From Gonapodya prolifera JEL478 (taxonomy: Eukaryota > Monoblepharomycota > Monoblepharidomycetes > Monoblepharidales > Gonapodyaceae): a stretch of 64,000 nucleotides of DNA. The notes below the pieces were generated by a model, which was given only the letters and a program-made list of their open reading frames with translations, was not told the origin of the DNA and did no database searches. Every line of letters starts with the position of its first letter. Position 1 is the stretch's first letter. The position numbers and the translations under genes were made by a program. Of this stretch, positions 9,496 through 44,132 are shown piece after piece. The stretch is taken from contig KQ965743.1 in the NCBI GenBank assembly GCA_001574975.1, forward strand, positions 533,308 through 597,307, written 5' to 3'.

Positions 9496-9655
9496 TAAAT
9501 TCTAACAACTCTCGCTGCGGTCAGAAAAACCATCGGCAATAATCTCGGAGTCGTTCTTGCCTCGCTTTCCATTTTCAATCTTTTGTAAGTCGTGTATTCA
9601 AAAACATGCAAATCTATGTAATGTCATCAAGTTTAGTTTAATGCAACTAGACTCG

Positions 9656-11599
9656 TCAGTGGGGCATCTCCACTGCAAGTGCTTTCCATTGGGCTGGTGC
9701 CATCGCGTCCTTGGACTTCATGCTCTTCGCCATCCAGTCTCCAACTACCCCCACCATTGGCATCTCGACACGTCCGCCGTTGCGACCGATCATCTAGAGA
9801 TNGTCCTTGGACTTCATGCTCTTCGCCATCCAGTCTCCAACTACCCCCACCATTGGCATCTCGACACGTCCGCCGTTGCGACCGATCATCTAGAGATCCA
9901 CCCATGCGTGAAACAATGAAACTGGGAAAGTGGGACCATTCGTTTACTCACAACCGAACCCATTTGCATCACTCCGCCAAACTCCTTGAGTTTGCTAGAC
10001 GCTGCCTTGAGGAANNNNNNNNNNNNNNNNNNNNNNNNNNNNNNNNNNNNNNNNNNNNNNNNNNNNNNNNNNNNNNNNNNNNNNNNNNNNNNNNNNNNNN
10101 NNNNNNNNNNNNNNNNNNNNNNNNNNNNNNNNNNNNNNNNNNNNNNNNNNNNNNNNNNNNNNNNNNNNNNNNNNNNNNNNNNNNNNNNNNNNNNNNNNNN
10201 NNNNNNNNNNNNNNNGTGGAAACATCCCCGAACGCAAACACTTGCGGAAGCCCCTCGACGTCAAGCTGGAAAGTCTTTTTGCTCCGCAGCTCTCCCGTTT
10301 CCGTGGCGTACCCAGCGGGGAAAGATTCCGCGATGAGGGAACCGTTGAAGCGTCCATTTCCAACACAGATGAACTGCAAAACAATCTTCAAGCTTCGAAG
10401 CCACCTGCAAATCTCACTCGGCAACACACCTGCATATCGGATTCCACTCCCCGTCCGGTGCTCGTTTTGAGCGTCCTTCTGCCCGTGAAGGCAAACTCTA
10501 CCGAGGTGAACTCCTCCCTTGCCAGCTCCACCGCTTCACCCAAGATGACTGTGCAGCCAAGCTCCTCCAACTTGTGCTTGACAGCGTCTCTCATTTTGTC
10601 AGACACGTTGTTGGCTTCAAGGAGTTTCTTTCCTGCGTGAATAAGCGTGACGGGCTTGTTGGGGAAGTCGGTCAAGAGCTCGCCGGCGACTTGAAGATAC
10701 AAGCGTCGTGTTTGTAGGGGGAAGACATTTGTTGAGGAGACGCTCAAGAGTGAAAGCGGTTCAACATCAACTCACTCTCTGAAAACCACGGGAGTACACA
10801 AATTTCAAGCGCAATAAGGTTTGCGAGCAAAGTCGAGGTGGAACAAGGCAATGAGATTTCCCCTAAAAGCTAGCTCAGGTGGAATCGTGGTTACCCACCG
10901 ACTCCAACAGCTCCACCTCCAACCACGACAAACGATTTTGCCGACTTGACGTTTTCCTGAATCTTCTGGTACACCGCCTTTGCCGAAGCCGCCTCTGAAA
11001 CACGAAGCGAAGGATTCCCATCAGTACATAAAGGTATTATTGTCGTCAACTCGCTTACAACTCACTTGGTTTGGTTGGAAACTTCGCAATCTCCCTGTTG
11101 TTGGCACCCGTCGCGAGAACGAGGTAGTCGAAGGGCATGACTTCTGAAGTGGCAGTGACCAAGTGTGTCGCTTCCACAGACTGTTCGAAAGTCTTCAGTT
11201 TCTAAACCACCGATAGCGCAAAGACAATGTGCGGACTTACTTGAATGAAAGTGTTGGTTTTGACTTTGAGGTTCGGCAAATCCTTGGCGACGTTATCGTA
11301 CGGAACAAACAACTGCTTCTCGAATCCGGGCTCCACGATAGCGCGTGGAGATCCAATCGAGTGATGAAACGTATCCCTCCGTTCAATCATTGTAATTTCC
11401 ACCGGGAAATTTTTAAGTGCGCCGGCTAGCTTTTGCGAGGCTGTAGTCCCCGCATCTGCATGTTCATGTTGCGTTTCAGTCTCGTCAGTACTGACGCCAT
11501 CGCCGCCCGTCAGTTTTCACTGCGCCACTCACACCCGCCGCCGACCACCACGATGCGCCGGGTCTGGCCGTCCTTGAAAGATTTGGAGCCGAAGAGCAT
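9656..11599 (-). CDS. AIF2/AMID (FSP1)-type FAD-dependent oxidoreductase, interrupted by assembly gap
   Basis: A pyridine-nucleotide-disulfide-reductase-fold flavoprotein related to AIFM2/FSP1 and yeast Aif1, an NAD(P)H:quinone-type oxidoreductase. Exons: 11599-11533, 11455-11241, 11201-11066, 10994-10899, 10689-10430, then 10373 into the N gap, 10014-9952 and 9889-9656. Frames agree at every join outside the gap. The first FAD Rossmann motif is IVVVGGGYAG, split by intron 1. FDYLVLATGA follows, then the second dinucleotide motif SFVVVGGGAVGV, and LPQVFAFGDVS just before the gap. The C-terminus has the SVVMIGRNGG block. The last exon is present twice because of the 95-bp assembly duplication at 9707-9897; collapsing it gives one clean exon. 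FSP1-like proteins carry an N-terminal myristoylation Gly; here the start is MLFGSK, so that signal is absent. Confidence 0.88.
9707..9897. repeat. 95-bp direct duplication flanking a single N (assembly artefact)
   Basis: Positions 9707-9801 and 9803-9897 are identical as far as I can read, separated by one N at 9802. The repeated sequence is the last exon of the AIF2-like gene. This is the usual sign of two contig ends that overlap but were not merged. Confidence 0.93.
10015..10215. other. Assembly gap (N run)
   Basis: A run of 201 N bases inside the AIF2-like gene. It removes the region after the FAD-binding GDV motif, up to FLKAASSKLK. Confidence 0.99.
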
Positions 11600-20253: not shown

Positions 20254-23200
20254 ATGTCGTCGCACAGATCTAGAAGCAGTCACGGCAACTCGCAGGGCGG
20301 ATCTCACGAGGACTCTCGGCTCCCAAGCTCCCATCCATTCACTCTTCGCAAACCTAACGCCCACACTGCCGGAGCAGCCGGCTCTCCCAATAGTGGTATT
20401 TCTACCCGCATATCTACCACTGTGGCAGACACTACGCTCTCTGCCCCACCGTCTTCCCCTTCAGTGGACCAAAGTCAGAAATCGGGAAGATCCACAAGAA
20501 GTTCTCGCAAGGCATCATCATCATCTATTGCTTCACAAGCTTCTGCCATTTCCGCAACTACCTCTTCTGATTTCAACGTAGAGACACCTTCCACGGTCGC
20601 TTCATCGAGGTATGTGGATCCAAGTTGACCGCACTTCCATTTGCGGATATTTATTCGCTGTACATTTGTCTTCGTACTGATTAATTCCATCTGCTTTTAT
20701 TGGTTGCCCAATTGACTGTATTCTGGTATCTTCCTTCAGTCGGAAGCGCCCACGACCAACATCCATCACTTCGCAAGAGTTGTCAGAGCAGACAGCGGAA
20801 GAAGACAAAGGATCACAAACCCACAAAAGCCACCAAAATTTGTGAGTAAACGGTACGAAACCGTGGAAAAGGCAATGGATGCATTCTATGGACAATTCCA
20901 AACTGGAACATTTCGGTATCGCTCGTGGTCATTAATTTTGCGCTGATTTGCCTAACTGCCAACAGGAAACGCGCCCGTCGCGACTACACGATGGCCAAAG
21001 ACAAATCTGACAAGCACCTTCCGACTTCCTCGTCTCCTCAACCTCCATCATCTCACTCCAACCACCCATCTGTTGACTCGACGCCACATTCCCCACCTCC
21101 ATCGTCTCCAAGCCGGCGGCAAAAGAGATCGAGTCGCGCGCAACGTCCTTCTTCCCCTCACGTCGGCGTTGATGTGATGGATGTCGATGCAGAAGCGGAC
21201 GACACCCTCTTGGCAACTTCCTCGGCTGGCCGCAGAAGGAGCAACAAACCCAACCCTCTGCTTGCTTCAGGCTCCAACACTTCGGAAGGCTCCTCAGATA
21301 CCCGACAGAAGAAAGGCAGACGCGGCCGCAAGCAAGGAGAACCTGAGACTCTCTCCACATCTGATCTTCACAAATCCGAGGGGATAACGAAATGGGAACC
21401 ATCTGACACTGGCGCCAATCCCAGTGGAGTACCGCTGCGAGGCGAGAGTGTTCACTCTGGTGGATCAGGAGATGAAATGGCATCAAGTTCCCAGTCCACT
21501 GGAACGAATTCAAAAGGCTCGTCATCCGCGAGCACCGCAAAGGGTAAGAGTAGCAAAAACAAGAAAGCAGTAGAAGATCAAGGACAAGGAAGTCCAGTAA
21601 CCGCCGAAATGCAACTTCAACAACCAGAGGGAATAGCTGCTGTGGACAATGGTGCATCAACCTCGAGTTCAGAGCCACATCAGCGTTCAGACATGAACAT
21701 TGACGAAGAAAATAAACACGATCCACCGAATGGTTCAGCTTCAGAAGCAGAAGCAGAGACACCCATTGCTCCTCCCCCGCACGTCGCAACGCCTCCACCC
21801 TCCTCTTCCACCACTCCACCAACAAACCCCACCGCCCCCCCAGCAAATGTGAACAGCTTTTTGTACGGAGTGCAACGCACTACCGGCAATTCGAGTGGAC
21901 GATTCCGCGAAATGCTGAACAACCTGAAAGAAAGCGAACCGACTATGCAAATGGTCGCTCTTCAGGAGTTGGCTGAGGTCTTGAGTATCGCCACAGGTGC
22001 GTGCATCATAAACCTCTTTATGCAAGATCCACAAAACTAATACGTTTAATTGCGTAGAGGATCAGTTTCTTTCATCATCGTCTTCGCGGATGTCAGGATT
22101 TGACGTGGACGAATTTGTTCGTGCGCTTGTTCGGATAATCAAGGGACCGGAAACAAAGAATGTTGATATCCGAGAGCGACTTCGCGCGGCGGGTATTCCA
22201 GACGACTTCCCGTTGGAGTTTGTTGATGAAGGGGTTCTTCAAGATTTGGGTATAGCGAGCGGAGGAGATCAAGGCGATAGAGGTATGTTCTTCCAGTTAA
22301 ATGTTGAGCCTGGCATTTTAATAACGGTGAATACTTTGTCTAAGCAATGCTCCCTGAACTTATTCTTCTGGCGTGCCGTTGTCTCTCAAATCTGATCGAG
22401 GCGCTGCCATCATCCACTTCTCACATTGTTCAAAATGGAGGAATCCCTGCACTTGTTTCCAAACTACGGGAGGTTGAATTTATTGACCTAGCTGAACAAG
22501 TTCTAGCAGTCATCGACAAATGTGCCCATGACTATCCGACGGCGGTGCTACGAGCAGATGGACTCTGCGCTTCCCTTCAATATGTAGACTTCTTCGCTCT
22601 TGGGACTCAAAGAGTTGCAGTCAATATTGCAGGCTCTGCCTGCCGTGGCCTCCCAAGTTACTCATATAATTCGGGTGCAAGTTCATCGGCTGGTTCTGGG
22701 GGTGAAACGAGCAATCAAAGTAAACAACCGGACCGTCCTGTTATGGAAATGGTCAAAGAAGTCATGCCAACTCTAGAAAGGCTACTGCAATACGGAGACG
22801 CGAAACTTGTTGATGGAGTGGTCCGATGCCTTGGAAGAATCGTCGATTGGGCTTGGAGACTTGGTGGAGACCAACTAGAGGTGAGCAAAATCAGGCGTAT
22901 AGAGAGAAGGACTCAGTTGGCTGACCCTTTTCGCCTTTGGACCCCAAGGAAATAATAACCCCAACGTTCCTTCAAATAATTGTCCAACTTGTCACCCCTT
23001 CGAGCGGACCTGGTGTTGGTACTGGTCCATCAAATATCAATCAACCTATCTTCGTCCCACTGTTGAGGCTTCTCGCCAATGTTTCGCGCGGCTCAGCCAC
23101 ATTTGCTTACAATTTTACCGCTCAGAATAGCCTTGTCCCTGTTTTACGGGGCACACTCTGTGGTGGCACCGTTCCAGACGACCTCTTCTTGGAGGATGAC

Positions 23201-26200
23201 GAGGGAGTTCCGTTGCAAGGAAAGCTCGGCTTTTCCTTATCGGAGCGAGTTGTATCTTCCGTGGGTCGAATGTCATCCGAACAAGTCACAGAATCTCTCG
23301 CACTTGCTGGGGAAGTGGTGATGGGACTTCCGAAAGGTTAGAGCAGCGTTCATTTAGCTGATACTGCGTTTTGCTCAAACATAAATTCTCTTTAGTGGGT
23401 ATATGGGCGTTGGATGATGTCGCCCAAGAGATGCAACCGCAGGGCCCGTCCACGGAAACTCTGGATACATCTGAGCCAACAGATGGATCAACGAGCAATA
23501 GGACACCAGTAGGGGAGAGTCAAGTGGGAGGCAAATCAACCTTACGTGAGGATGTGGAAATGAAGAACGCGGAGTCAGCTCACACAGCGACCGAAGGCGT
23601 TATAGTCGAACCTGACATTGATAAAGAACCCCAGAAAGAGATCCAACACGGTGAAGAGGGATTGGGGACGAAAGTGGATGATGGTGATGAAGACGACGAT
23701 TATGAGGATGAGCCTGAAGAGGAAAACGTGGAGGCTGCCAACGATCCCGCGGGAATTGGAAGACGCGGTGCAGGTCCTGTGTCGCTTAGTGTCGCTGAAC
23801 AGATCAGTATCCGCGACAAAACGCTTTTCGGGCTGTATCAAAATGATCCGTCAGCTCTGACCACGTACAGCGCTGACTTGATTCCGATTCTTATTGAAGT
23901 ACATGCCGCTACCGCTCAACAAAGCATTCGCCGGTTGTGTGTACAAATCTTGCTGAAGTTCCTTTGGTGGTGTGGGAAAGTATCTGGAGCCAAAGGTCTC
24001 AACAATGTGTTGCAACGATCCAAAACTGTTGGAGCGTTCCTCTCAAACTTGATTGGTGTCGGCCGAGACCTTGCGTTTACTTCACCTACCCAGCCACAAA
24101 CTGGGAAGCATCAATCGCAATCTTCAGCTGATCAGAGACGCCTGGAAGCACTTTCTAGTCTCTTAGCTGGATTGCAGGGTGTTATCATAGTTATGGAGAA
24201 TGGTCCAACGGAGTATCGCCAGAGTTTCGTGAGAGAAGGCGTCGTGTTCGAGGTTTTAAAAGTGCACGAAGCAGTTGAAAAGAGGCTGGAAAAATCCTTG
24301 ATCCCAAACGAGAGCGATTCCGATTCTTCGCCAAAGGAGGAGCTGAAAATTATTGTTGATCCACCGGCGCCTGTAAAGTCTGACGATCCATTGATAGCTT
24401 CGAAACGCGACGATAAGAATGAAATACAGCGTGCAGGAGATCATTCCCCGGATGTTGATATGGTCGATGGAAATGACGAGAAGGCTAGTTCTGCAGATTC
24501 TCCACGGCGCTCTGCGCGTCTCAAGGGAAAAGAGAAGTCTTCGTCAGGACCTGGAACCGAAAGCACACATGCTGATAGCACTATTCCTGCTCCCCCTACC
24601 GCCACAACCTCGACGATGACTTCTGCTATCGATGGTGTCGAGGCAAAACTGCAAGAAGCAAGTGACCCCATGCTTCGTCTATTGGATCGTCTGAGTGGCT
24701 CAGGTGCAAGATCAGATGGTGCTTCTGCTACAGCCAACAAGGCCTTCAACTCTTCACACAGGCTGCAATCAGTTTCAATGGTGTTGGCCATGAATGGCGA
24801 ACGCTACCCAGAGTCCAGCGTTCAAAGTCAAATCTTCAATATTTGTACCAAAATTCTGAGCTTCTACAGCACTGAAGCGAAATCCGGCGAAGGCGATATA
24901 TTGATGGATCTGAAAGCACTAAATGGAGCACTGTACATGGATTCTCGATGGAAACCCCTTCAAGAAGACGCGAATGATCCAGCGAGAGTGCGAATATTGA
25001 CACAGCTTGCGAAGCTTTTTGCAGGAACGGTGGTGGGAGAAGCTGGTCGAGGCGTCACAACATTCGAGCTGGCAGAAAGCAAGATCGTAGAAGCTCTTTC
25101 ATCTTACCTCCAGACTACTATCGACTCAGATGCCGCCCATTCCAATTGGTTGTCAGGTATCACTCAACCACCTCACATTTCTGAACGCATCAAAGCCTTC
25201 ATTTATGTGTTCATGAACGGTCCGAAACCATATCCCCTTGCCGATGATCGTCTATCGCATGTACCTGATGCGTTCCGAAGTTTGGTGAAGCGCCTTCACT
25301 CATTGGTTTCTCGAACTGAAAAGTTCGATGTTGCGACCGCGTTCACTGGTAGTGGATTGGGCAATACTCTCAGCTCGTTGTATGAGGGGATGCTTTCTTC
25401 CCTTGGCTCTGTCCAGAGCCCTGCCCTGCAGCTTGCGAAGCAGATCAAAATTCGTATAATGGCCGAAGAACCGCAAAATGTGCCCAAAGGCTATCAAAGT
25501 TTAATGATCAGCATCCATGCTGTTGCGACGTTTCGCTCGTTGGAGGAGTACTTGAAACCGAAAGTGGGGGATATTGATTTTGGGAAACAGTCCCCACTCT
25601 CTGGAGGTAACATACCGGAAAAAACAGCGACCGCAAGCAGCTGCGGTCTGCCGGTCGAAGTCAACAAGGCAGACACCGTGATGGACTCCACTATTCAACA
25701 TACCCCTGCCCCGGCGGAAGAGTCAGAAAGCGCGGATCACAACATACGAAGTGAAGCCATGGATATAGATAGCGGTGAGGAGGTACTGAAGCTGAGTACT
25801 GCAAAAGGAGAAGTCGAGGAAACGGGAGAAGACGATGATCCCAACGAGTCACCTGAGAGTGAAGAAAGTGATGAAGAATTAGAGGAGCACCCTGACCAGG
25901 AGGATCCCGATGAAGACGGATACAGTGATGAGGAAGGAGAGGTGAGTGTATTTGAATAGGATAGTCTCATTGCTTCAGCATAATGATGTTTTGGGTTCAG
26001 GCCATGGATATGAGTGACCTTCTGATTCATGCAGAGGAGGAACTGAGAAAGCACCGCTCAACGAAAAAACGCAAGAATGGGAAGGCCCCGGAAGCTCTTA
26101 GCGCTGATGACAGTGCCAAAGAACAAGCGCCACCAACAGCTCTTGATTCCGACGAAGTTGTGGATATCGGTGACAAAGATGATAAAGAACCGCTAACACC

Positions 26201-28813
26201 GGCGTCTAGCGCTCCGACAGATGCGCCGATGTCCGATATTGTAAAAGGTGAAGTGGTGGAGCCCACACAAGGCAACTCGGGCTCTTTAGGCGTCGCCCCA
26301 CCGCTTCGTGGAAAGGAACCCGCAAGCAATGTTGGCTCCGCCACGGATGCTTTGTTGTCAAAAACTTCGCATCAAGATGCCCATGTTGATAAAAGCCAAA
26401 GCAACCACTCCTCTGGGGCGGTTGCCTGGTCGGCCAATCCCTCAATTTCGCAACAGGCTGTCGTGGGTGATTCGGATGTCAAGGTTGAATCTCAAGATTC
26501 GGGTGCGTCGGCATCGAAATCGTTCAGAATCGAGTTCACATTGGGGGATCCCCAACGTGGTCGACCAATCCCAGTAGGGAATGAGTTGACAATATTTTCT
26601 GCCTGCTGGCACTACGAGGAACAGAATGCCGTGCATAAATTGGAGCATGAACGGGCCTCTCAAGATACCGCAGAAGCAACCAACTCCTCCAGCCCAGTAA
26701 CTTCGCCAATCAACGTTTGGGCGCAAACGTACACAATTTACTACAGGAAGGTGCCCGAGGCTACAGCTGCGAGCTCCGAAGACAAACACCCGGATTGCTT
26801 GGGTGTTTCGGCCCACGACGACCATGAAAACCAAGAGAATACCCAACTTCAATCAGTGGCACAACACGATGATCTTTCCACTGCGAAAGTCCAACTGCCG
26901 TATTCCCAACAGCTTGTTCCTGGAATTTCGCAAAATTCTCCGAACGGACTTGCATTATACCTGTTGCGTGCACTGTACGGTATCAACCACTCTTGGGAAC
27001 ATGTATACATCCGAGACAATCCCTCTACTCCTCACATGAGTGTTTCGGCAACTGGTGCCGTGGACAATCTGCCTAATGAGGAGCTCTTACTTGCTTCCGG
27101 AAGCCCTGGAGGTGTTGCAGCGCTCCCTGATAGTGCATTTATAAATTCAAAAATCACGGCTAAGGTTGCACGGCAGCTGGACGAACCGCTCATAGTTGCC
27201 AGTCATGTACTTCCAGACTGGTGCAAAGCAGTGGCCCGAGAGTTGAGCTTCCTCATCAACTTTGATACCCGTTGGACGTTTTTCCAGAGCACTTCATTTG
27301 GCTACAGTCGAAGCATGATGCGATGGCAGCAGCAGCAAAGCGGTCAACAGACAGGATCTTCATCCCGCGAACCACAAACACTTGGACGTGTCCAGAGGTC
27401 AAAGGTCCGAATAAGCCGGAATAGACTCTTGGATAGTATGTTGAAGATCATGGAGCTCTACTCCAGCAGCCAAGCACTGCTGGAAGTGGAATTTTTCGAC
27501 GAGGTTGGAACTGGCCTAGGTCCAACTCTCGAATTTTATAGTCTCGTTTGCAACGAGGTCCGAAAGAAAAGTCGAAGATTGTGGCGAGACGACGATAATC
27601 AACGGCATATGGAGGGAGAGTATGTAAATTCACCAAGAGGATTGTTTCCAGCGCCTCTGAATGCCGCAATGAGAGACACAGTCAATGGCAGGTGGGTCAC
27701 ATGATCATTTTGTAGCACCTTTCAGCTCTCACACCAAGTGTTTGCGCCAGACACAATGTGCATCTCTTCAAAATGCTTGGCGCTTTCGTTGGGAAGGCCC
27801 TCTTGGACAACAGGATTATTGACTTACCGTTCCATCCCCTTTTCTTGTCTGCGGTAATTTCAAAAGATGGCGCCTCGAATTTCGGTGAAGAAAGGTCCGA
27901 CTGGTGGGAGTTAGAGGGATTGCACTACCTCAAGGTTTGTGTTTTTCCACACTGTCATTGGTACCCAGCCTAATTATTTGTTTTTCCAGGACATCGATCC
28001 CGCTCTTGCTCAATCGATCAACCATCTTTACAAATACATCAAACTGAAGCATCAAATAGAGGCTGACTCGTCAATTTCCACCGTGGAGAAGACTGGAAAA
28101 CTTTCAGCCCTCGCAGTCGACGGCGCAACAATCGAAGATCTTACGCTCGACTTTACTTTACCAGGATATGATACCATCGAGCTTTGTAGCGGCGGGAAGG
28201 ATAAGGTTGTCAACATCGGCAACGTGGAAGAATACGTGAAAGGCGTCATGGATCTCACTTTGGGTTCTGGTGTGCGCAGCCAGGTGGCAGCATTCCAACA
28301 GGGATTTGATAGCGTTTTCCCGGTCACCGACTTGAAAATCTTTACACTTGATGAGCTCGGACTTCTGTTTGGCGGTGCCCAAAATGAAGACTGGAGTCCC
28401 GAAAGTAAGTTTTCGATGATGTCGTAATGACATTGTTCATAGTCTAACCTGCAATATGTATCTCAGCGCTCTCTGATGCTGTGAAGGCGGACCACGGCTA
28501 CACTTCTGAATCACGCGCCATCAAATACCTTATCGAAGTTATGACGGCCATGACCCCAATCGAACGCCGAGAATTTATCCAATTCGTGACGGGATCCCCT
28601 AAACTCCCCATCGGTGGATTCCGAAACCTCTCGCCCCCACTTACAGTGGTGTGCAAGGTACCTGATTCACCATATCAGGCAGATGACTATCTGCCATCCG
28701 TGATGACTTGTGTCAACTACTTGAAACTTCCCGACTACAGCAAAAAAGAGGTACTGAAAGCGAAAATTCAAATAGCGTGCAGTGAAGGAAGGGGTGCATT
28801 TCACCTGTCTTGA
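20254..28813 (+). CDS. UFD4: UFD4/TRIP12-type HECT E3 ubiquitin ligase
   Basis: A giant E3 of the ubiquitin-fusion-degradation pathway. Eleven exons sum to exactly 2606 aa: 20254-20609, 20740-20841, 20966-21996, 22058-22282, 22345-22880, 22949-23336, 23396-25941, 26001-27691, 27751-27934, 27990-28404 and 28467-28813. The N-terminal ~450 residues are Ser/Pro-rich and disordered. Armadillo-like repeats follow, with LPSSTSHIVQNGGIPALVSK and EFIDLAEQVLAVIDK, closest to Ufd4 and TRIP12. Several acidic stretches lie between repeats, including DEDDDYEDEPEEEN. The C-terminal HECT domain starts near LEVEFFDEVGTGLGPTLEFY. It includes KMLGAFVGKALLDNRIIDLP, the SRAIKYLIEVMTAMTPIERR block and the catalytic Cys in VMTCVNYLKLP (about residue 2573). 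No WWE domain was seen, which favours Ufd4-like naming. Confidence 0.94.
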
Positions 28814-29000
28814 TTTCGAACGATGTTGGGCTGATAATCCACGAACTGCAAATTTCACGCTTGGATGTGCCAAGCTGCATGTAAATCATCAACTGTAATA
28901 CATTTCTTCTCATTTCCCAGTGTCGTCGAATGAGAATCAAATGAATTTCTTCTCGTTTGCACATTCACTGTTGTGACTGCGGACAATCACCAAATTCACA

Positions 29001-29900
29001 ATGTCGTCGAGTGAGAATCCCATCGTATTTTTCGATGTAGCGATTGGTGGTGCTCCAGCTGGAAGAATTAAGATGGAACTCTTCGCGGACGTGGGTAGGT
29101 GGTGAGCGGATCTTCCCAGGCAGACCAGATGAGAATCTGTCTATCGCGCATTGCATATTCTGACAGTAATCCAACCCGACTCGCTTTCAAACCGACGACT
29201 ACGACATCCCATGAATCATACGTAACTGCTGATGACTTATCGTGTGATCAGTTCCAAAAACTGCGGAGAACTTTCGACAACTCTGCACAGGAGAACATCG
29301 AAAGAACAACATTCCTCAAGGCTACAAAGGCGCCCAATTTCATAGGATCATCAAAGGTTATTTCTGTTTCGTCGCGCCTGAAACACCGCAAGACGTGGCT
29401 GATGTTCTTTTTGACACAAACCTACCTCGAAGACTTCATGGTGCAAGGAGGTGACTTTCTGAAAGGCGACGGCACTGGGTCCTTCTCGATCTACGGTGAA
29501 ACGTTCGAAGATGAAAGTTTCTCCATCAAGCACACGGCCGCTGGGCTTCTGAGCATGGCGAATGCCGGAAAGAACACCAATGGATGTCAGGTGTGTCTGA
29601 GACGGAATGCTATTCCAATCATGAAGCAGGGGACTTTTATGAAGATGCTTGGTCCAAATTTCATGTTTTGGCTGAGGATGAGTTTTAAAGCTCGCAGCTA
29701 ACTTTAATTGTGTCATCATTTCATGAACCACATAGTTTTTCATCACCTGTGCCCCTGCCCCCTTCCTCGATGGCAAACATGTAGTTTTCGGCAAATTGAC
29801 GGACGGTCTTCTCACTCTGCGGAAAATCGAGAACGTTCCTACTGGTGCCAACAACAGACCGAAGGTCCCAATTGTAATCACGGAGTGTGGACAGTACTAG
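29001..29900 (+). CDS. PPIH (CypH)-type cyclophilin, spliceosomal peptidyl-prolyl isomerase
   Basis: A cyclophilin closest to PPIH/USA-CyP, which binds Prp4/hPrp4 in the U4/U6 snRNP. Exons 29001-29094, 29252-29356, 29433-29590 and 29736-29900 give 173 aa. Landmarks are [50 protein letters not shown] (with the catalytic Arg), [39 protein letters not shown] and the PPIH-like C-terminus [20 protein letters not shown]. The residue at the cyclosporin-binding Trp position ([10 protein letters not shown] in PPIH) is Phe here. It is convergent with the sulfite reductase gene, with 94 bp between the stops. Confidence 0.95.
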
Positions 29901-29994: not shown

Positions 29995-32900
29995 CTAGTA
30001 AACTTCTAGGACAAAGCGTTCTTCTTCCTTCATCTCTTCCAAGTACGCCTCTGCTTGCGCGCGACTTAATCCCCCATGCTCGAACGCACGAAGAATGGCT
30101 TCGGTAACATCCGGGACTGGCCACACCTGCAAACAAATTTCCAACAATGTTAGGATATTGACGAGTGACTTTTGAATACAAAGCAAGAGTACCCACAGGT
30201 CCGCAAAGATAGAAGCTTCCTTTTTGCTTCACCAACATGTTGTATAGCATTTCTGCATCCTCATGCATCTTGTGCTGAATATAGACTTTCTTCTTCTGAT
30301 CACGACTGAAGGCCAGCCGTAAATGCGTCAAAAGACCGTCTTCGTGCCACGCATCCATTTCTTCTCCATAAAGATATTCCTGGGACCGGTGGCGAGCACC
30401 GAAATAAAGAGTCATAGGACCAACGGACTGCTTGGAGTGCTTTTGAACAGCACGAGCCTGAATAAACGTGCGGAATGGTGCCATTCCCGTTCCTGTCCCA
30501 TGAAGATGATAAGCACACAAACATCGAGGGAGACTCATTTCGAACTCACCAAGTCCGGACATGACAACAGGTGCCAGGGGAGATGCCGGTAGTTTCATAA
30601 TTGACGGTTTGATGGAGACAGCAATTCTCTGTCCAGGTTTCAAGTTCGACAGGTATCGCGTTGCCTGGCCTTGCCGAGGACGACCAAATCCATCGGTCCA
30701 ATCCACAAGGACGATCAAGAGGTGGACTTTTGTTGGATGCATCGAGGCCGCGGAGGCGATGGAATAGGCGCGTGTCTTAATTGGTGGTATCAGCTGCACC
30801 AATTGTCCCAAGCTTGGACGAGCCGTCTTGAACTCCCGCAAAATATCCGCAAATGTGACAGTGAGTTCTGCCCGCCTGTCAAACTCGTGCGCTCCATCTG
30901 CGGATCCAAGCCATGACAACTTGTTGCGTTCTCCAAGATCCTTGGCGTATGACGAAAGGTCCTGAAAGGTGGAGACCTTTCAGATGGTTTCCAACATCAT
31001 TTCACAAAATATGACAAACCTTGTAAAATCCTTTGCCAGGCCTCCCAAATATGTCTAGCACTTGCCCGAACACTTGTTCAGCTGTGCGGCTTTCGATGAC
31101 TGTATTGCCATCAGAGGATTTCTGTTCGGTCTCAACAATTTCGTGAGGATGAACTCCGTATTCGTTAAGGAAATGTGCAACTTCTTCAGGGTCGTTGTGA
31201 GCGTAAACGCCCAGGGCTTCACCGAGACCATTGTACGTCAGTCCAGAACCGGCCAGATCCACTTCCATGTGGAAGATGTTTCGATCGTACGAGTCTGGAG
31301 TAACCCGAATACGCTCGCTCACCACTGCGGAATGAGCGTCGCCGACATCGGGGCGGAGGCTGTACTTCACCCCGAAAGCCTCCGAGAAAACCATTTTCCA
31401 TCCGGCATTAAACCAGGTGCTAACGTGGGGACCATTGTTTAACGATCCTGCCCCAGCCTGAGCAACCGACTGCGAGAAGGGCACCGATTTGTCCTGGACG
31501 TGGATACGTCCCCAAGTTGCAGGAATCGCGACCTTGTGAGCAACTTTAATTGCTTTTCGAACAGCTCGCACAAGACTTCGGCGCACACCAAAGTGGTCGA
31601 AAGTTTCGTGAATTCTCGAGATCAACGCCTCCACATTCTCCTGGGGGTGAGAAGTGCCAAAGTGATAGAACAAGCCTTCGAGAATGATGTGCGCGTATGT
31701 CTTCTTGTCGCCAACAAACTGAGTGAAGGCTTGAGCGATCTTGTCGGCATCCACAATGTAAAGCTGGGCCTCCTTGGCCGCTAACGTCTTCAAAACTTCG
31801 CCGGTGAGGTCTTTCTCAATCTCTTCCAATGATGTCCAAGTAGCGTTGACCAGGACGTGCCCCCTATGTTTCAAAGAGGACAGGCTGTCATACGCGGCAA
31901 CAAGCCTGGAATCGTGGAATGCGATGTAATCGGCTGCGAAGACAGGGAGGCTTGGAGAATCGCCATGTCCGAATCGCAGGTCAGTTCGAACAGCTGGTTC
32001 CGGTACTAATGCGTCAACGCTGGCATGGAAGGCGACTGTCTCCGAGCCAGCACTGTAGAGGCGGTGTACAGCATGCTCTGCAACGATCTGGCTGCCCTTG
32101 GCCTCAATGTCGAAGAAAATTGCTTGGTGTAAACCCTCGGGAGAGTAAGGCGACGTTGGTGCCCCAGTCGCGATGTCACTGTCAACGACGATAGTTCTGT
32201 GGTGTGGGGCAGCCTTCGCAACGATACTGAAGAGTTTCTCTGCCACTCCGGGATTGAGCTCGATGCCGTTTTCGACCTTAACGTCATACAGATTGATCGA
32301 TTTCCGGTTCTGAACGCTCGTTGCAACGTATGCAAACACGTATCCATGCGCTGCACCGACATTCCTAGCGATTCTCGACGGGTCAACCACAGCCACCCGC
32401 TGTGCGGAGTGCGGCAAGGCCTCTGCGAAGTGTTCCGATGCCCAAGGGCTCAGAAGTCGAGCCTTGACAAGTCCTACTTTGTGTCCGGTCGAGACAACCT
32501 TGTGCACCGCAGCCTCCACTGCAGTCGCATCCACGGACAGAGCGACAATCACCAATTCAGCTTTCGGGTGACCGATGTATTCGAAGGACTTGTAGGATCT
32601 ACCAGAGGATTTCTGGAGTGCAGAAAACGCCGCTTCCACATCTGAAACGGTGCCTGAGGTTGCGTGGTCTCTGTCGTAGACTTCGGTGATGTGACGAATG
32701 TCGGCAGCAGGGAGTGCGAGGAAAGATTTCTTTTCCGATGCAAGGAAGGAACCATCATATGCATTGATGAAAGGAGTCCCGCTGGCGTTGGAGGCCAAGT
32801 GAGCGGCAATCGCCATATCGTAAACCTACGTCCGATTCACGTTAGCACTCAAAAAGGAGAATATCATGTCGAGGGGCAATCACCTCCTCCAAAGAACCTC

Positions 32901-35099
32901 CCACAACGACAGCTGCTCCAACGTGTGCTGCCTCCCAAACTCCACTGAAATCCGCCTTAACGCCAAGTACTTCACCGACTCCCTTGGTTTCCACATGAAG
33001 CACACCTGCGTTGCGACCGTGAACCATGGCAGCCAATCCATCAACCATGAATGGCAGGCTCAGGTTCTGTACTAATGCAGCAACGGATGCTCCCGCGGAT
33101 GCTACACCATGGATGGCTGCACCGGAGGAGGTACGGGTAGGAAGCGAAATGACAGTTGCCGGGAGTCCACGAATGTTCACCGAGTCCACGAGTTGAGCGA
33201 CCCGGGTGGATCCAGTGACAAGGACGACGTCTGAAACAAGTGTCGCCACGTGCTCGATAGCTTCAGTTGCTGTCGCAATAGTGCGCGTGCCCTTTCGGGG
33301 AACTTTTGGCCTGGTTGGAGTTACTGCCGGAGAAGCTTTGTGGACAGATGGTGTAGGAGTAGGTGGCACCACCTTGGCAACGACTGGCTCAACATGGACA
33401 TGATGCGAAGAAACGATCTGAGTTGAGGATGTAATTTAGCAAAACGAACATTTTCGAAACAGGTCACCTCAATGACAAACCTTAGTCGTTACTCCCTCGC
33501 CTTCCAACCAACTTCTCACGTCCTCCGCCTCGGCGTCATGATGGTCAACAACAATCCATGTAACTTTGACACCCTTGGACGCAGCGGCGACCACAACGGA
33601 GCGAGCTGAGTCGGCCCTGCCAGGCCGCACAGAGAGAAGGTCACCAGAGACGAGAGTTTGGTACTCTGTCGATAGGGTTGTGGGACCAGCAACCAAGTCT
33701 GCGTCTGAATGCGAGGAGAAGGCGTCAATTCATGAACAATGAGTGAAACGTTCCTACTTGTTTCAACCCACCGACAATCGCTTCGTACACATGCACATCA
33801 ATGTGTCCAATGTCACTGACGTCTGGTGCAACCTTGACAATGTTTACGACCGCTTTTGAAGAAGAAGACGACGCGGTGAATTTGGTCGTGGTCTCCACTT
33901 CTCCGTCGCTCCCAGTCTCCGTCGCAGAATCGCTCTCAACCTCCTCGCGGGACGAGCGCAGCGGCTGGGGTTCTTCACCGCGAGCGAACGAGCGAGTCGC
34001 GAACGTGAGCTCAGCGTCGGATGCGAGAGCGAGGGATGCAAGCGAGGATTTCGCAATGATGTGGGAGAGATGCTCTTCCAGGCCGGATGACTCGGTCGAG
34101 TGTCCTTCAAGTCTATAAAAAATTCCGTGTGTTTGAAAAGAAGCACAAAGGACCGCTTATTGAATGCCAGTTACCTGTCGCGCAGTTTGTCAATGTTCTC
34201 GGCGGCTTTTCCAAGCCCGTGTGGCAATTGCTTCTCCAGAGTAGCCCGAATCTTGTTGACGATATCAACGCCTCCGACACCGTTTCCGGTCACGCCAATC
34301 TGGACAGAGCCGTCTTGGATTCCACCGAGCAGGCGGAAGCTGGAGAGTTCGGGGTGTCCAGCCACATTGATGGGGATACGTCTGTGAGCACACAGCGAGA
34401 CGACGCGCTTGGAAGTAACTGCGTCTTCGACAGCGCAAAGAACAAGAGCGGTGGAGTCTGAGAGGTCGACGTTTGGGAGCAGGTGGCGGGTCTCGAGGGA
34501 CACATGCACATGGGCATGGGATTCCGTGGAATCGACAAAGTCAGACAGGGTCGCCGAGGGCTTCAATCCGCCCGTGACAATACGAAGGACGCTCGGTCGG
34601 GCAGCAAGAGCGATTGAGGCTCGGAAGGCGGCGAGGTCAGAACTGTTGTGGAACAGAAATCGTGAGAAACCGGAACATCAACCGCGAGAAAAAGATTGTC
34701 TTCCGTGCACAAGTTTTCTAGACCGTTGCATTCTCTTGCGTTGAAAACTTACCTTCCGACGACAACGACGGTTTTTCCTTCCAGGTTCCACCCCACCAAA
34801 AGGGACGCCTTTGCTTCTCCGATTGGGCCAGCGACTGAGACGGACGCACGCACGTCCTCCTCGTCCTGGCGTAGTGCTTGTGCATGGTCCGGCGACCCGT
34901 GGGCTTCAGCCTTGCTTGAAACTGCAGCAACCATTCCGTCTCCGATGAGGTAAGCCGCCGAGAGGAAGGCCGAAAGTTGTAGAGCGTACGACGCAATCGT
35001 CCAGGGATCGGATGTGCTCACACCTGAGGGCGGTGTAGAAGCCGTTTTGGTGTGATGAACGGGGGGCGATTGCTCGACAGATGGCAAATGGGGAGCCAC
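29995..35099 (-). CDS. MET10: Sulfite reductase flavoprotein alpha subunit with N-terminal siroheme-synthase-like domain
   Basis: The C-terminal ~1000 residues match fungal Met10, the NADPH- and FAD-binding subunit that feeds electrons to the siroheme sulfite reductase. They include the pyruvate-ferredoxin-oxidoreductase-like region, TYNGLGEALGVYAHN, FAD motif TRAYSIAS, NADPH motifs SGLGTGMAPFR and YLCGPVWPVPD, and the end RFVLEVY. Upstream, all in phase through GT-AG joins, lies a Met8-like block. It reads LEGKTVVVVGSS, STALVLCAVEDAVTSKRVV, RIPINVAGHPEL and GSVQIGVTGNGVG..IVNKIR, like precorrin-2 dehydrogenase/ferrochelatase. Its Gly-rich loop and the acidic residue of the NVxDxP motif look altered, so it may be inactive. 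The following ~130 residues, including LVSGDLLSVRPGR, are of unclear origin. The 5' end is unresolved. The frame is open to 35099 without ATG, the first in-frame ATG is 34934, and an acceptor-like CCGCAG lies just upstream. Confidence 0.9.
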
Positions 35100-35416
35100 A
35101 AAAACTGCGGTGGCAGGAAGAATTATTGCGCAATTTCATGGCAAGGCCACAGAGGAAAAAAAAAGTTACAGAATCCAGAACATTCATCAGAAAAACTGTA
35201 GGATAGATGGGGCCCTCGCCCAAAGCTTGGCTGCGTCGGGCTCTAGCAGTAATGCAAACTGCGCTGCGGATCAAAAAGTGAAATCGTTGTTCCCGAGTTT
35301 GTATTTGCGGAAATACATCAAGATATGGGGGTGCTGTCTCCAAATGAGTATTTAGTCCATGAGGTTTACATAGCATTGGTTTCATAATTGGCGACCGCGA
35401 GTCGAGGTGTGTCGCA

Positions 35417-39829: not shown

Positions 39830-40335
39830 TGTGGAGGTTAAAGAAGATGGTACGAGAGGTGAAGGTTGTTCACCTTTTTGTACACCCTCAATCAGTTTGT
39901 GGCTGTGCGGTCACAGCTGCTGAATCCTCATCACTGTGACCGCATCGAATTGACATCGACTCAGCGGTTCATTCTTCCTTGACGCGACCATTGGAGCAGA
40001 AATCATACAACGTGACAGTCCCCTCGTGTCTGAATTTCGATGGTGCAAACTTCTTGGGAAATGTGAACAATGGAAGTCCCCATTATGTACATGTTCCATG
40101 CAGTGAATGGTCAGGCAGTAGAAAATATGCTGATGTCAATTAATGGCGGGGGTTTGAAAGCAGTTAGTGTACCGTCTCGCTATCTTCCTTGGGAAAAATG
40201 CCAGTCAAGTGCTGTTGGGTCACGGAAAAGAAAATGCGCTTCCAAATGAAATACGGTGAAGCGGTCATTGTAGGTGAAGTGAAACAAATTAGTGACTCAT
40301 TCCTGGGAGTAAAATCGCGGTTTCTCTTCTCACAA
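39830..40335. promoter_or_regulatory. Divergent promoter region between the TMEM198-like gene and COX10
   Basis: About 500 bp between two outward-facing starts. The COX10 frame is open back to about 40189 and holds upstream ATGs (40198, 40234, 40246), so part of this stretch could be coding. No defined element was recognised. Confidence 0.45.
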
Positions 40336-41784
40336 ATGATCACACTTGGCCGATGGTCCGCGACGTCTCCACGAAGATCACTACAATCTGTTGCATCAAC
40401 GGCCCGTGATCACAGATGGCTCCTCTGGCGGAATCGGGAACTTGTCTCTCACCAGATATGCAGCTTTCACCTCCCTCGCACATCGTCTCCACGACACGCA
40501 TCACCTGTTCGCGGTACTAGGACTGCCTTCTGCAACATAGCTCCAAAATCGAATCTGGACCGAGTTGAACTGTGCCAACGCTTCATATCGGTTTCCAACA
40601 CACCGACACCGAAACGATCGGTAGCGACAGCCACCCAACCTTCGTACACCGCTGAATCGCCGCGCCAACGGCTAGAAGTATCGACCGGCTCCCAAGGGGC
40701 ATCGTACCGGCCAAGCGAACTGCCATCTGAACTACAGGAATCTGTAGACCTCAATGGGACATTGGCCACCACCCCACCTTCCAATGATTCGACTCCCCAC
40801 ACTCTCCGCTGGGCACCTCCACCGCGATTCACATTATCCGTCTACTCCTCACTTTCAAAGGCGGGGCTAGCCGTCTACGTCGTCCTAACTGCTGCCTGTG
40901 GCTACGCACTGGCTCCCACAGCGGCTAGTCTTTCGACACTGTTATGGTGCACGGTTGGCACATCGCTTTGCGTTGCTAGCGCAAACTCGTTCAACCAGTG
41001 GGCAGAGTCCCCATTCGATGCTCAGATGCGTCGGACACGAGGACGTCCCTTAGTGCGTCACGTCGTCAGCCCTGTGCACGCATGGCTGTTTGGGGTTGTG
41101 TCGGGCCTCAGTGGTGTGGCAACGCTTTGGACTCTAGTGAACCCAGCTGTTGCTGCGCTTGGGGGACTGAACATTGCCCTGTACGCTGGAGTTTATACTC
41201 CTTTGAAGCGTGTTTCAATCGCCAACACCTGGGTAGGTGCCGTAGTGGGAGCCATCCCACCAGTCATGGGATATTTGGCAGCAGACCCCGGAGCACTCAC
41301 CACCAGCTTCGCACCATGGGTTCTTGCTGCCGTACTGTACGCTTGGCAGTTCCCACACTTCAACGGATTGAGCTGGAATCTTGTGGCGGACTATTCGAAA
41401 GCAGGCTATCGGATGATGGCAGTTACTGATCCTTCACTCACAACCCGTGTTGCGCTGAGGCACTCCGTCGGTTTGATTCTTTTGGGCTGGGCAGCTCCAT
41501 TAACGGGCGTAGTTGGACCCATGTTTGCGATTACATCGACGGTTCCGAACGGGGCTTTAACCTACCTCGCGTTTCGCTTCTGGAGGAATCCAGATGAAAA
41601 GTCGGCACGGAAACTATTCTTTGGGAGTTTATTCCATCTTCCAATCGTCTTGGCACTAATGATGGTACACAAACCACCAAAGGTGAAGGAAGATGGAGAA
41701 CACGAGATGGAAGCTAGTGTGTGGGATAACATTACAGAGAGGGCGAAGAGGGTCTGGAGTCACACGAAAGCAACATTGTATTAA
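40336..41784 (+). CDS. COX10: Protoheme IX farnesyltransferase (heme O synthase)
   Basis: An inner mitochondrial membrane prenyltransferase that farnesylates heme b to heme O, on the path to heme A for cytochrome oxidase. I chose the ATG at 40336 because MITLGRWSATSPRRSLQSVA is a good mitochondrial presequence; the open frame extends upstream to 40189. The product is 482 aa with no intron. The UbiA-fold core begins at LSVYSSLSKAGLAVYVVLTA. Conserved blocks are ASANSFNQWAESPFDAQMRR (first Asn/Asp-rich motif, with TRGRPL following), YAGVYTPLKRVSIANTWVGA, AIPPVMGYLAA, AWQFPHFNGLSW and the second Asp-containing motif DYSKAGYRMMAVTDP. A long linker of ~150 residues precedes the core, as in other fungal Cox10. 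Confidence 0.95.
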   Translation: MITLGRWSATSPRRSLQSVASTARDHRWLLWRNRELVSHQICSFHLPRTSSPRHASPVRGTRTAFCNIAPKSNLDRVELCQRFISVSNTPTPKRSVATATQPSYTAESPRQRLEVSTGSQGASYRPSELPSELQESVDLNGTLATTPPSNDSTPHTLRWAPPPRFTLSVYSSLSKAGLAVYVVLTAACGYALAPTAASLSTLLWCTVGTSLCVASANSFNQWAESPFDAQMRRTRGRPLVRHVVSPVHAWLFGVVSGLSGVATLWTLVNPAVAALGGLNIALYAGVYTPLKRVSIANTWVGAVVGAIPPVMGYLAADPGALTTSFAPWVLAAVLYAWQFPHFNGLSWNLVADYSKAGYRMMAVTDPSLTTRVALRHSVGLILLGWAAPLTGVVGPMFAITSTVPNGALTYLAFRFWRNPDEKSARKLFFGSLFHLPIVLALMMVHKPPKVKEDGEHEMEASVWDNITERAKRVWSHTKATLY

Positions 41785-42093: not shown

Positions 42094-43834
42094 CTAACGG
42101 AGTTCCAAGACTTCGTCCACATCATCTAAGTTGGGATGATCTGCTTCGGTGGTTGAAAGCGCCATTTCATCTTCCTCTACATCAACGCTTTCTATTTCTT
42201 CTTCAGAAATATTGCCATCAGAAAATGTCCTTTTGTACTTGTCCAAGGTCGCCCTCGCCTTTTCAACAAGGTCCGCATAATCCTCTGCGTACTTGCGTTT
42301 CCAAATGCCGGGATCGAATTCAGACGATCCCGGGTCCAACTTCCCTTCGGGTAATCCTTCCAAGATGGCGAGAAGTCCACCTGCCACACCGGCAGTTGTT
42401 GTCTTTTCCCAATTCGCAATCTCTTCAACTACCTTGCGCCGAGGCCGAGGTTGTGCAAGATCCAAGTTCGCATTCCATCTCGTCACGAATTCCTGAAGGC
42501 GTCGACCTTGCTGCGAACGAGCACCTTCGAGTGAAAGGCCATGACGCCTTAGATGTGCACGAAGCTGTGGTCCGGTGAGGAGTGGAAGAACAGGTGGAGG
42601 AAGTCTGCGAGGAGGTGACTTCGTAGCGCTGAACATTTGATCGAGAATGTGAGAAGATAGTGAAACAGCATCACAATATGGCGAAAAACTCACCAAAAAC
42701 TACCGAAAGAGGGTTTGCCGGCGGAAGTCAAGGAAGCGGCCGCCCGAGACGGAACCCCAGTGTCGGTGAACGGTGCAGAAATTTTCCCTGGCTGCCGCGC
42801 TTCCGGCGCGTCATCTTCTTCAATCAAGTCGGGTTGCACGTCTTGTTCGGCAGAGTTGTTAGACTCGTCCCTGATCGTTTCCTCGAAATCCGTTTTCCGC
42901 ATTTGTGGCATGCGAATATCGCGCATATCAACTTCAAATGTGGAGCTTGGAGCCAATTGATTCATGTCATAATGTGGTGCCCCCGCTCGAGTGTTGGAGT
43001 TCACATCCTCGGTAGAGATCGATCCCGCTTCAGACTTTTCAGCTCCTCTTATTCGATTTTTAGGCACCACTGACTTTGCTGCGGGAGCTTTCTTCGAATA
43101 TCCCAAAGCGGAGGCGTCCCGTTTGAAAATTGAGGCCAAACCACTGGAGGGTTGTTGTCCGCCCGATATTTGTGGTTCGGGGTCAGGTGGGGGACAGCCC
43201 GCATCAATATGAGAATTGAGTCGAGAGTAGCGAATCATGGAAGTACAAAGGGGACATGCCACCTTGTCCGACGCTGCACAAGGCTTAGAAAGAAGCGAAA
43301 AGCCTATTAACTTCTGCACCCACGTTTCAATTGCTGTTCTTTATCTTCGTCTTCATCAACGTCAATAACATCTTCCTGATTTTTCGGCTCCGTTTTTTTG
43401 GTGTTCATTACTGGGTGTGTGGTTTGGACAGAAGATCCGATGCGAGTTGTGTCCAGTTGATTCTCCAAAATCGTCAATCGCTCCTTCAAATGACGACTCT
43501 CGATCACTTTTTTTGATAGTGTGAGAGCTTCCGACCGCGCTGCAGTCCACCAGGCGTTTGCAACGTCTGCGAGCGCTCGGCTCACGGACAGCAAGGCCTC
43601 CTCAGTCTGTTGTCTGCAAGTAACACACTCGGAGCGTTCAGCGACGTGACGACGAACGCAGAGGGAGCACGCGACATGCCCGCATGCACCCGCGATAAGT
43701 GGAGGGTACTGGGTGTAGGGGCGAGCGCAAGCGGGACACTGGAGCAGGGCATCTAGCTGAGCAAGCGACGGCGGAAGGACATCGTCTGGATCGGCGTCCA
43801 ATCTTTGCCGCTTAGCTGGGCGAACAACATCCAT
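42094..43834 (-). CDS. RAD18: RAD18-type E3 ubiquitin ligase (RING, UBZ, SAP)
   Basis: The E3 that with Rad6 mono-ubiquitinates PCNA to start translesion synthesis. Exons 43834-43324, 43273-42694 and 42628-42094 sum to 541 aa. The start is the first in-frame ATG (MDVVRPAKRQRL). The RING finger is near residues 33-80: LLQCPACARPY, GACGHVACSLCVRRH and CVTC. The UBZ4-like zinc finger lies just after intron 1: VACPLCTSMIRYSRLNSHID then AGC. The SAP DNA-binding helix pair is near LTGPQLRAHLRRHGLSLEG, followed by SQQGRRLQEFVTRWNANLD. This RING-UBZ-SAP order is diagnostic of Rad18. The tail is acidic. The Rad6-binding segment was not resolved. Confidence 0.94.
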
Positions 43835-44132
43835 CGCAGACGTTGCAAACGCCTGGTGGATGGTGACGGAATTGTCTTCGCATTGTGCCAAAGTCTGGGC
43901 ATATGTTCATATCTCGAATCTCATTTCATATTACTGCAATAATTGTACCATATACTTTCAATCCAAATAACATAACCACTTTTGACACTAGTGTACTTTG
44001 AAAAGACATAACGATAACGGTATGAGAGTGAATGTTGTATGTACGTGTGCTTCAAAGGCGTGCCAATGTCTGTCGTAGCCCTCGCCGCGCCATTTCTCCC
44101 AGCTCTACCTCGCCATTGTTCTTGTTCCTCCG

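What the first reader, a model, noticed from the sequence alone, without database searches (positions are those of the whole stretch)
33700..35099. Siroheme-synthase-like (Met8) domain fused to the N-terminus of Met10 sulfite reductase
In the fungal systems I know, Met8 (making siroheme) and Met10 (the flavoprotein half of the siroheme enzyme sulfite reductase) are separate genes. Here GT-AG joins keep one frame from a Met8-like NAD(P)-binding and dimerisation region into full-length Met10. The Met8 part seems to have lost its Gly-rich loop and the conserved acidic residue of the NVxDxP motif. It may therefore serve as a siroheme- or partner-binding module rather than as an enzyme.
Basis: partly seen in the sequence, partly recalled or inferred. 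Interest (0 to 1): 0.8.

Follow-up and report, generated by a model that had tools for sequence, protein, structure and literature searches.

The report
Sulfite reductase with siroheme-synthase-like N-terminus
A fungal-type gene for the flavin half of sulfite reductase reads in one frame with an upstream, apparently worn-out copy of the enzyme that makes siroheme, the cofactor that sulfite reductase needs, which hints at a physical link between cofactor making and cofactor using but proves nothing yet about function.

Summary
On the minus strand nine exons joined by eight GT-AG introns give one open frame of 1,464 residues, from ATG 34934 to a stop at 29995. Residues about 48-227 are homologous to the dehydrogenase/chelatase half of siroheme synthase; residues from about 450 on are a full Met10. 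No in-frame ATG lies between residues 1 and 529, so Met10 has no obvious start of its own. The key Asp is gone (D104 to Gly), as are P133 and both glycines checked in the Gly-rich loop. Residues about 305-412 may be an eroded methyltransferase half; that signal is weak and mixed. Best reading: a non-catalytic CysG/Met1-type module fused to Met10, probably a dimerising or docking part, possibly only a relic. No transcript, fungal relative or whole genome was available. Seven literature searches showed no such fusion in the listings and passages seen.

The parts
34753..34934 (-). exon 1 as modelled from ATG 34934 (frame open up to 35135; a 5' exon further upstream is possible)
   Evidence: GTAAGT donor at 34752
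34175..34642 (-). exon 2: core of the siroheme-synthase-like (CysG-B/Met1-N/Met8) module, residues 61-216
   Evidence: six-frame profile hit E 2e-13; Pfam/NCBIfam; Foldseek's first eight PDB rows are CysG and Met8p, at weak scores
34753..34757 (-). Gly-rich NAD loop site: G60 kept, the next two positions are Ser (codon 61 is split by intron 1)
   Evidence: alignment
34357..34359 (-). codon 156, Gly in place of the catalytic Asp (CysG D104; Met8p D144 in the paper's numbering)
   Evidence: PMC7018833 passages
34270..34272 (-). codon 185, Gly in place of CysG P133 (tetrapyrrole platform)
   Evidence: PMC7018833 passages
33772..34112 (-). exon 3: end of the dimerisation-helix region, acidic/Ser-rich linker, start of the possible methyltransferase relic
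33481..33704 (-). exon 4: possible eroded SUMT-like stretch (residues about 305-412 span 33847-33397 with introns 3 and 4)
   Evidence: weak: first of 151 windows in one test; hmmsearch and hhalign not significant
32884..33417 (-). exon 5: Pro-rich linker, then start of Met10 proper (POR_N match from residue 475)
31020..32825 (-). exon 6: end of POR_N, PFOR_II, POR and start of the FAD-binding domain of Met10
30550..30961 (-). exon 7: Met10 FAD-binding domain
30197..30492 (-). exon 8: Met10 NADPH-binding domain
29995..30126 (-). exon 9: Met10 C-terminus and stop codon

Best explanation
One gene encodes a sulfite reductase flavoprotein subunit (Met10) with an N-terminal extension of roughly 430-450 residues. 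The extension is a siroheme-synthase module of the CysG/Met1 type that has lost the aspartate needed for dehydrogenase and chelatase chemistry, and other active-site residues (shown by alignment); a worn-down first half of the methyltransferase domain may follow (weakly supported). Inferred: it no longer makes siroheme. The stretch that matches PDB CysG best (residues 121-222) takes in the dimerisation helices, so the likeliest role is structural: it holds Met10 subunits together, or pairs with the same fold in Met1/Met8 and brings the siroheme-making enzymes near the siroheme-using reductase. Residual tetrapyrrole binding is possible, because several contact residues remain (N101, R140, R162 identical; K27 as Arg).
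For: Continuous spliced frame without internal stops. No in-frame ATG between 34934 and 33048. Homology. Losses: read against PMC7018833 (passages): D104A CysG has zero activity in both assays and does not complement; P133G falls from 47.4 to 2.7 (dehydrogenase) and from 203 to 14.2 (chelatase). CysG/Met1 type rather than Met8p. Order module-then-methyltransferase as in CysG.
Against: No transcript, expression or binding data; no relative with the same fusion could be searched for. P133G CysG still complements (++ in the same table) and S128A CysG is more active than wild type, so those two losses alone would not mean a dead enzyme. No separate Pfam hit to a dimerisation model, and in the exon 2 model the dimer-helix part has low confidence (blocks of 43-68 pLDDT). 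Methyltransferase relic: nothing by hmmsearch; 35 of 200 shuffles reach the hhalign score with a first profile, 6 of 200 with a deeper one, at 2% probability, where windows starting at 381-457 score almost as high. The tree joins window and Met1p at only 66/32, both long branches.
Confidence: 0.5

Rival explanations
1. The fusion is real but the N-terminal module is a passenger: a leftover of a fusion with a decaying MET1/CysG-type gene, tolerated but with no present role.
For: Loss of the catalytic Asp and of P133, both loop glycines changed, long branch, erosion of what follows.
Against: About 450 codons stay open in frame with coding-like codon use and residues 121-222 still match PDB CysG at E 4e-6, which suggests selection; no dN/dS could be done without relatives.
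Confidence: 0.28
2. Two genes are read as one: a decayed MET1/MET8-like gene and, just downstream, an ordinary MET10 with its own first exon.
For: No RNA evidence. A 10-nt exon from ATG 33798 with a weak donor (GTACGA, 33788) could join exon 4 in phase.
Against: The second in-frame ATG is at 33048, already inside POR_N. Of 12 ATGs in any frame between 34650 and 33250 only two (33798 and 33792, sharing that donor) could be spliced in phase to a modelled acceptor under the simple donor and intron-length rule used. Exons 3-5 score as coding in the same frame.
Confidence: 0.12
3. The module is still an active siroheme synthase (dehydrogenase and/or chelatase) physically tied to its client.
For: Fold family is clear. 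The monofunctional dehydrogenase SirC has a serine at the aspartate position (PMC7018833 passage). P133G and S128A CysG keep function. 3 of 7 bacterial rows also deviate in the Gly-rich loop.
Against: D104 to Gly, P133 to Gly, both loop positions Ser, R175/W179 not found; D104A CysG is inactive in both reactions (PMC7018833).
Confidence: 0.05
4. The architecture is ordinary in the lineage of the source organism and already sits unremarked in sequence databases as predicted proteins. (Compatible with the best explanation: it bears on novelty, not on mechanism.)
For: The gene looks intact. No fungal protein database could be searched here.
Against: Seven full-text searches gave no mention in what was listed and read; this tests print only.
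Confidence: 0.5

Closest known systems
Bacterial siroheme synthase CysG (dehydrogenase/chelatase half CysG-B followed by SUMT half CysG-A)
   Same: Same Rossmann plus dimer-helix module (hhalign 98.99%, 22% identity over 170 columns); a possible SUMT-like stretch follows in the same order.
   Different: Catalytic Asp and Pro133 lost, both loop glycines changed, S128 is Gly; SAM-binding GAGPG and GGDP motifs absent; second SUMT half absent; fused to Met10.
Yeast Met1p (Met8-like N-terminal domain plus uroporphyrinogen III methyltransferase)
   Different: Met1p keeps a full methyltransferase and is a separate protein; here the methyltransferase is at best a half relic.
Yeast Met8p (PDB 1kyq)
   Same: Same fold family; NVA-x-x-P loop.
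   Different: Weaker similarity (z 8.2); Met8p keeps the Gly-rich loop, the Asp and the Pro.
Fungal sulfite reductase flavoprotein subunit Met10
   Different: In a global alignment yeast Met10 (1,035 aa) begins near residue 434 here; the N-terminal extension has no counterpart in it.
Fused ATP sulfurylase and APS kinase of fungi
   Same: Also sulfate assimilation, also a fused enzyme domain whose role is regulatory rather than catalytic (PMC2275785, passage).
   Different: Different pathway step; no siroheme component.

Membership tests
Siroheme synthase dehydrogenase/chelatase (CysG-B, Met8p, SirC) | Sequence family of the NAD-binding domain (Pfam NAD_binding_7) | tested here: met
   48.3 bits, cut-off 22.1
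Siroheme synthase dehydrogenase/chelatase (CysG-B, Met8p, SirC) | Full N-terminal family model (NCBIfam cysG_Nterm, cut-off 62.3) | tested here: not met
   56.6 bits, E 2.7e-15, positions 4-165 of 205
Siroheme synthase dehydrogenase/chelatase (CysG-B, Met8p, SirC) | Dimerisation / central helix region | tested here: inconclusive
   Aligned to PDB CysG 69-169 at E 4e-6 and in hhalign, but no separate Pfam hit and low pLDDT there
Active dehydrogenase/chelatase | Gly-rich NAD loop | tested here: not met
   G-S-S against G-G-G in E. coli CysG and Met8p; 3 of 7 other bacterial rows deviate at one position, the window at both
Active dehydrogenase/chelatase | Catalytic aspartate D104 of CysG | tested here: not met
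   Gly156 in the window; Asp in E. coli CysG, Met8p and 7 of 7 bacterial rows
Active dehydrogenase/chelatase | P133 platform | tested here: not met
   Gly185 in the window; Pro in E. coli CysG, Met8p and 7 of 7 bacterial rows
Active dehydrogenase/chelatase | Enzyme activity | not testable with these tools
   needs protein
Uroporphyrinogen III methyltransferase (SUMT, Met1p C-half) | Recognisable TP_methylase domain with GAGPG and GGDP motifs | tested here: not met
   No Pfam hit, motifs absent; only a weak positional signal
Met10 sulfite reductase flavoprotein | POR_N, POR, FAD_binding_1, NAD_binding_1 in order | tested here: met
   All four above Pfam cut-offs; PFOR_II 26.1 against 27 just below
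Met10 sulfite reductase flavoprotein | Near full-length match to a known Met10 | tested here: met

The most novel reading that the evidence does not exclude
A catalytically dead siroheme-synthase module has become a permanent docking or cofactor-handling arm of sulfite reductase: it pairs with Met1/Met8 or holds siroheme or sirohydrochlorin, and so couples cofactor making and delivery to the enzyme that uses it.
Probability: 0.2. Interest if true: 0.75.

Novelty: new variant of a known kind. Interest (0 to 1): 0.5.

Why it matters
How siroheme reaches apo-sulfite reductase is, to my knowledge (recalled, not from a call), not settled. A natural fusion of a siroheme-synthase fold with the reductase's flavoprotein points to a direct physical link and gives a concrete object to test. 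It would also be a further case in sulfate assimilation of an enzyme domain kept as a non-catalytic partner, beside the fungal APS kinase domain of ATP sulfurylase (PMC2275785, passage).

Tried and rejected
Whole-genome search for separate MET8 and MET1: no genome is held for the window. Inside the window a six-frame search finds no second CysG-B and no methyltransferase; that says nothing about the rest of the genome.

Eukaryotic relatives as contaminants: viral contigs with Met10 exon 6 (2 pattern stretches, none a relative) and with the N-terminal alignment (183 stretches, none); genome contigs with the same alignment (202 stretches, 36 loci, all with bacterial record titles); plasmids by tblastn (14 records, all bacterial). 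No fungal sequence was obtained from a collection.

Methyltransferase relic: hmmsearch with a CysG-A profile, nothing. hhalign, single sequence: score reached by 35 of 200 shuffles; with 36 more sequences picked by motif, 6 of 200, E 0.025, probability 2%. Pairwise z against 5 non-redundant SUMT halves (of 33): global 1.4-3.6, local 0.35-3.85. Sliding windows (151, 60 shuffles each per reference): the window starting at 307 is first in global mode (mean z 2.95), but windows at 55 (2.67) and 1036 (2.55) come close; in local mode the seven best all start at 262-316. hhalign sliding windows (72): best at 267, 286, 305, 248 (19.3-19.0), then 419, 400, 438, 381, 457 (18.7-18.4), so the region is not clearly singled out. 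Kept as a lead only. Exon 4 folded alone: pLDDT 44.6, useless.

Tree of the module: window with Met1p, 66/32, long branches, not used as evidence. Structure of exon 2 with 18 of the 36 bacterial loci as alignment: pLDDT 76.2; Foldseek's first eight rows are CysG and Met8p, but E is 3e-3 at best, TM-scores to the query 0.37-0.47 in those rows and rmsd about 10, so it is no good superposition, and the alignment itself held CysG rows.

Residue numbers start one codon before the ATG and are one too high.

Changed after checking against the calls: open frame upstream 201 nt (not 198); loop variation in bacterial rows, S128A/P133G function, TM-scores and near-tied windows added; place of the N's beside the repeat and the possible 5' exon coordinates mended.

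Full report
What is there. On the minus strand of the window nine exons (34934-34753, 34642-34175, 34112-33772, 33704-33481, 33417-32884, 32825-31020, 30961-30550, 30492-30197, 30126-29995) join through eight GT-AG introns of 57-110 nt into one frame without an internal stop (ATG). The protein has 1,464 residues. The frame has no stop for 201 nt further upstream, so a 5' exon may be missing from the model. In each exon the modelled frame has the best codon score of the three frames on its strand; the codon model was trained on two other long ORFs of the window, 23362-25956 and 25965-27701, the second of which is UFD4-like. On the opposite strand one frame of exon 2 scores 0.10 (with 2 stops) against 0.07. 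The only N's of the window are at 9802, 10015-10215 and 60369, none in the gene.

One gene or two. The second in-frame ATG is at 33048, inside the POR_N domain of Met10. Between 34650 and 33250 there are 12 ATGs in any frame; two of them (33798 and 33792, sharing one weak donor at 33788) could be spliced in phase to a modelled acceptor under the simple rule used. An ordinary Met10 start is thus not found in the obvious place, which favours one fused gene. No RNA was available.

What the N-terminal part is. Residues 49-164 match Pfam NAD_binding_7 (8e-12 in the full protein, 1.6e-12 in the first 442 residues). NCBIfam gives siroheme synthase CysG (6e-17, residues 48-237) and cysG_Nterm (2.7e-15), both below their curated cut-offs. 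In the PDB, ten distinct CysG sequences match at E 3.8e-6 to 4.1e-5 and a ribosomal protein at 0.67; Met8p is not among these 11 matches at E <= 1. A profile of bacterial CysG-B from the loci matches at E 2e-24 for a search space of one protein and in hhalign at 98.99%. In the whole window exon 2 is the only significant such hit. A model of exon 2 made with 18 bacterial rows finds CysG and Met8p in the first eight PDB rows, but at E 3e-3 or worse, TM-scores under 0.5 and rmsd about 10.

Which kind. Met1p scores 10.0 against CysG L004 and 2.9 against Met8p. The recalled Met1p has NAD_binding_7 (21.2 bits, cut-off 22.1) and Sirohm_synth_M (24.5, cut-off 25) in front of TP_methylase (137 bits). 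A tree cannot decide: window and Met1p join at 66/32 as two long branches.

What it has lost and kept. Aligned to E. coli CysG, Met8p, Met1p and seven bacterial CysG: Gly-rich loop G-G-G to G-S-S (three of the seven bacterial rows also deviate at one of these two positions); D104 to Gly156; S128 to Gly180; P133 to Gly185; R137 to Asn and K166 to Glu (both variable in the other rows); R175 and W179 without a recognisable partner. Kept: N101, P106, R140, R162; K27 is Arg, as in Met8p. PMC7018833 (passages, section 7) names most of these as tetrapyrrole contacts. It reports D104A as dead for both reactions; P133G as strongly reduced but still complementing; S128A as more active than wild type. 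[quoted passage not shown] Recalled Met1p has also lost the Asp and the Pro.

Behind it. Residues about 305-412 align by MAFFT with the first half of the SUMT domain that follows CysG-B in CysG. The statistics are weak: hmmsearch nothing; hhalign 35 of 200 and 6 of 200 shuffles; global z 1.4-3.6 and local z 0.35-3.85 against five SUMT halves. In favour: among 151 windows along the protein the one starting at 307 ranks first in global mode (though 55 and 1036 come close) and the seven best in local mode start at 262-316. Against: with hhalign, windows starting at 381-457 score nearly the same. The SAM and GGDP motifs are gone either way. I put the SUMT-relic reading at about even.

Met10 part. 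POR_N, POR, FAD_binding_1 and NAD_binding_1 pass Pfam's cut-offs and PFOR_II just misses. PDB relatives in the 60 of 110 rows shown include P450 reductases, the sulfite reductase flavoprotein and pyruvate:ferredoxin oxidoreductase. So the extension is about 430-450 residues.

How it may work. Shown: fusion in sequence, family, losses. Inferred: no siroheme-making activity; a structural role through the dimer-helix region, either joining Met10 subunits or pairing with Met1/Met8; possible leftover tetrapyrrole binding. A mere relic cannot be excluded (0.28).

Known or new. Seven full-text searches listed 20 of 41, 6 of 6, 20 of 19,442, 12 of 15, 14 of 14, 10 of 10 and 1 of 1 papers. In the listings, and in passages of five papers, I saw no fusion of a siroheme-synthase domain with the sulfite reductase flavoprotein. 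PMC4102429 (passages) gives the Met8 architecture for 125 proteins of 96 fungal species; PMC6240589 (passages) describes separate Met1, Met8 and two sulfite reductase subunits in Aspergillus fumigatus; PMC5922974 (passages) treats MET1, MET8, MET5 and MET10 as separate genes in Rhodosporidium toruloides; PMC2275785 (passages) discusses other fusions of the pathway. No fungal protein database was searchable, so the fusion may well sit unremarked in predicted proteomes.

Noticed in passing
5880-7886 (-): A 669-residue frame with an IMPa helical domain (4e-38) and a Peptidase M60 (enhancin-like) domain (3.5e-12).
   Followed up: no
22344-28813 (+): UFD4/TRIP12-like ubiquitin ligase gene in several frames: TRIP12 N-terminal repeats at 22344-22952, UFD4 match at 25965-27701; the rest by eye.
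   Followed up: no
40168-41781 (+): UbiA prenyltransferase frame (1.7e-51), possibly COX10-like; the COX10 label is recalled, not tested.
   Followed up: no
42097-43906 (-): A frame with RING-finger matches just below Pfam cut-offs (43310-43906), followed by frames that look RAD18-like by eye; the RAD18 label was not tested.
   Followed up: no
29000-29900 (+): Cyclophilin-like frames by eye, just downstream of and convergent with the Met10 gene; not tested.
   Followed up: no
9637-10467 (+): The same peptide appears twice in one frame on either side of the single N at 9802, with an assembly gap (N 10015-10215) close by; it may be an assembly duplicate.
   Followed up: no
35105-35385 (-): The frame upstream of ATG 34934 stays open to 35135 and scores coding-like; by eye a short exon from an ATG near 35385 (donor near 35369) could splice in phase to an acceptor just before 35104, which would lengthen the N-terminus. 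Not tested.
   Followed up: partly
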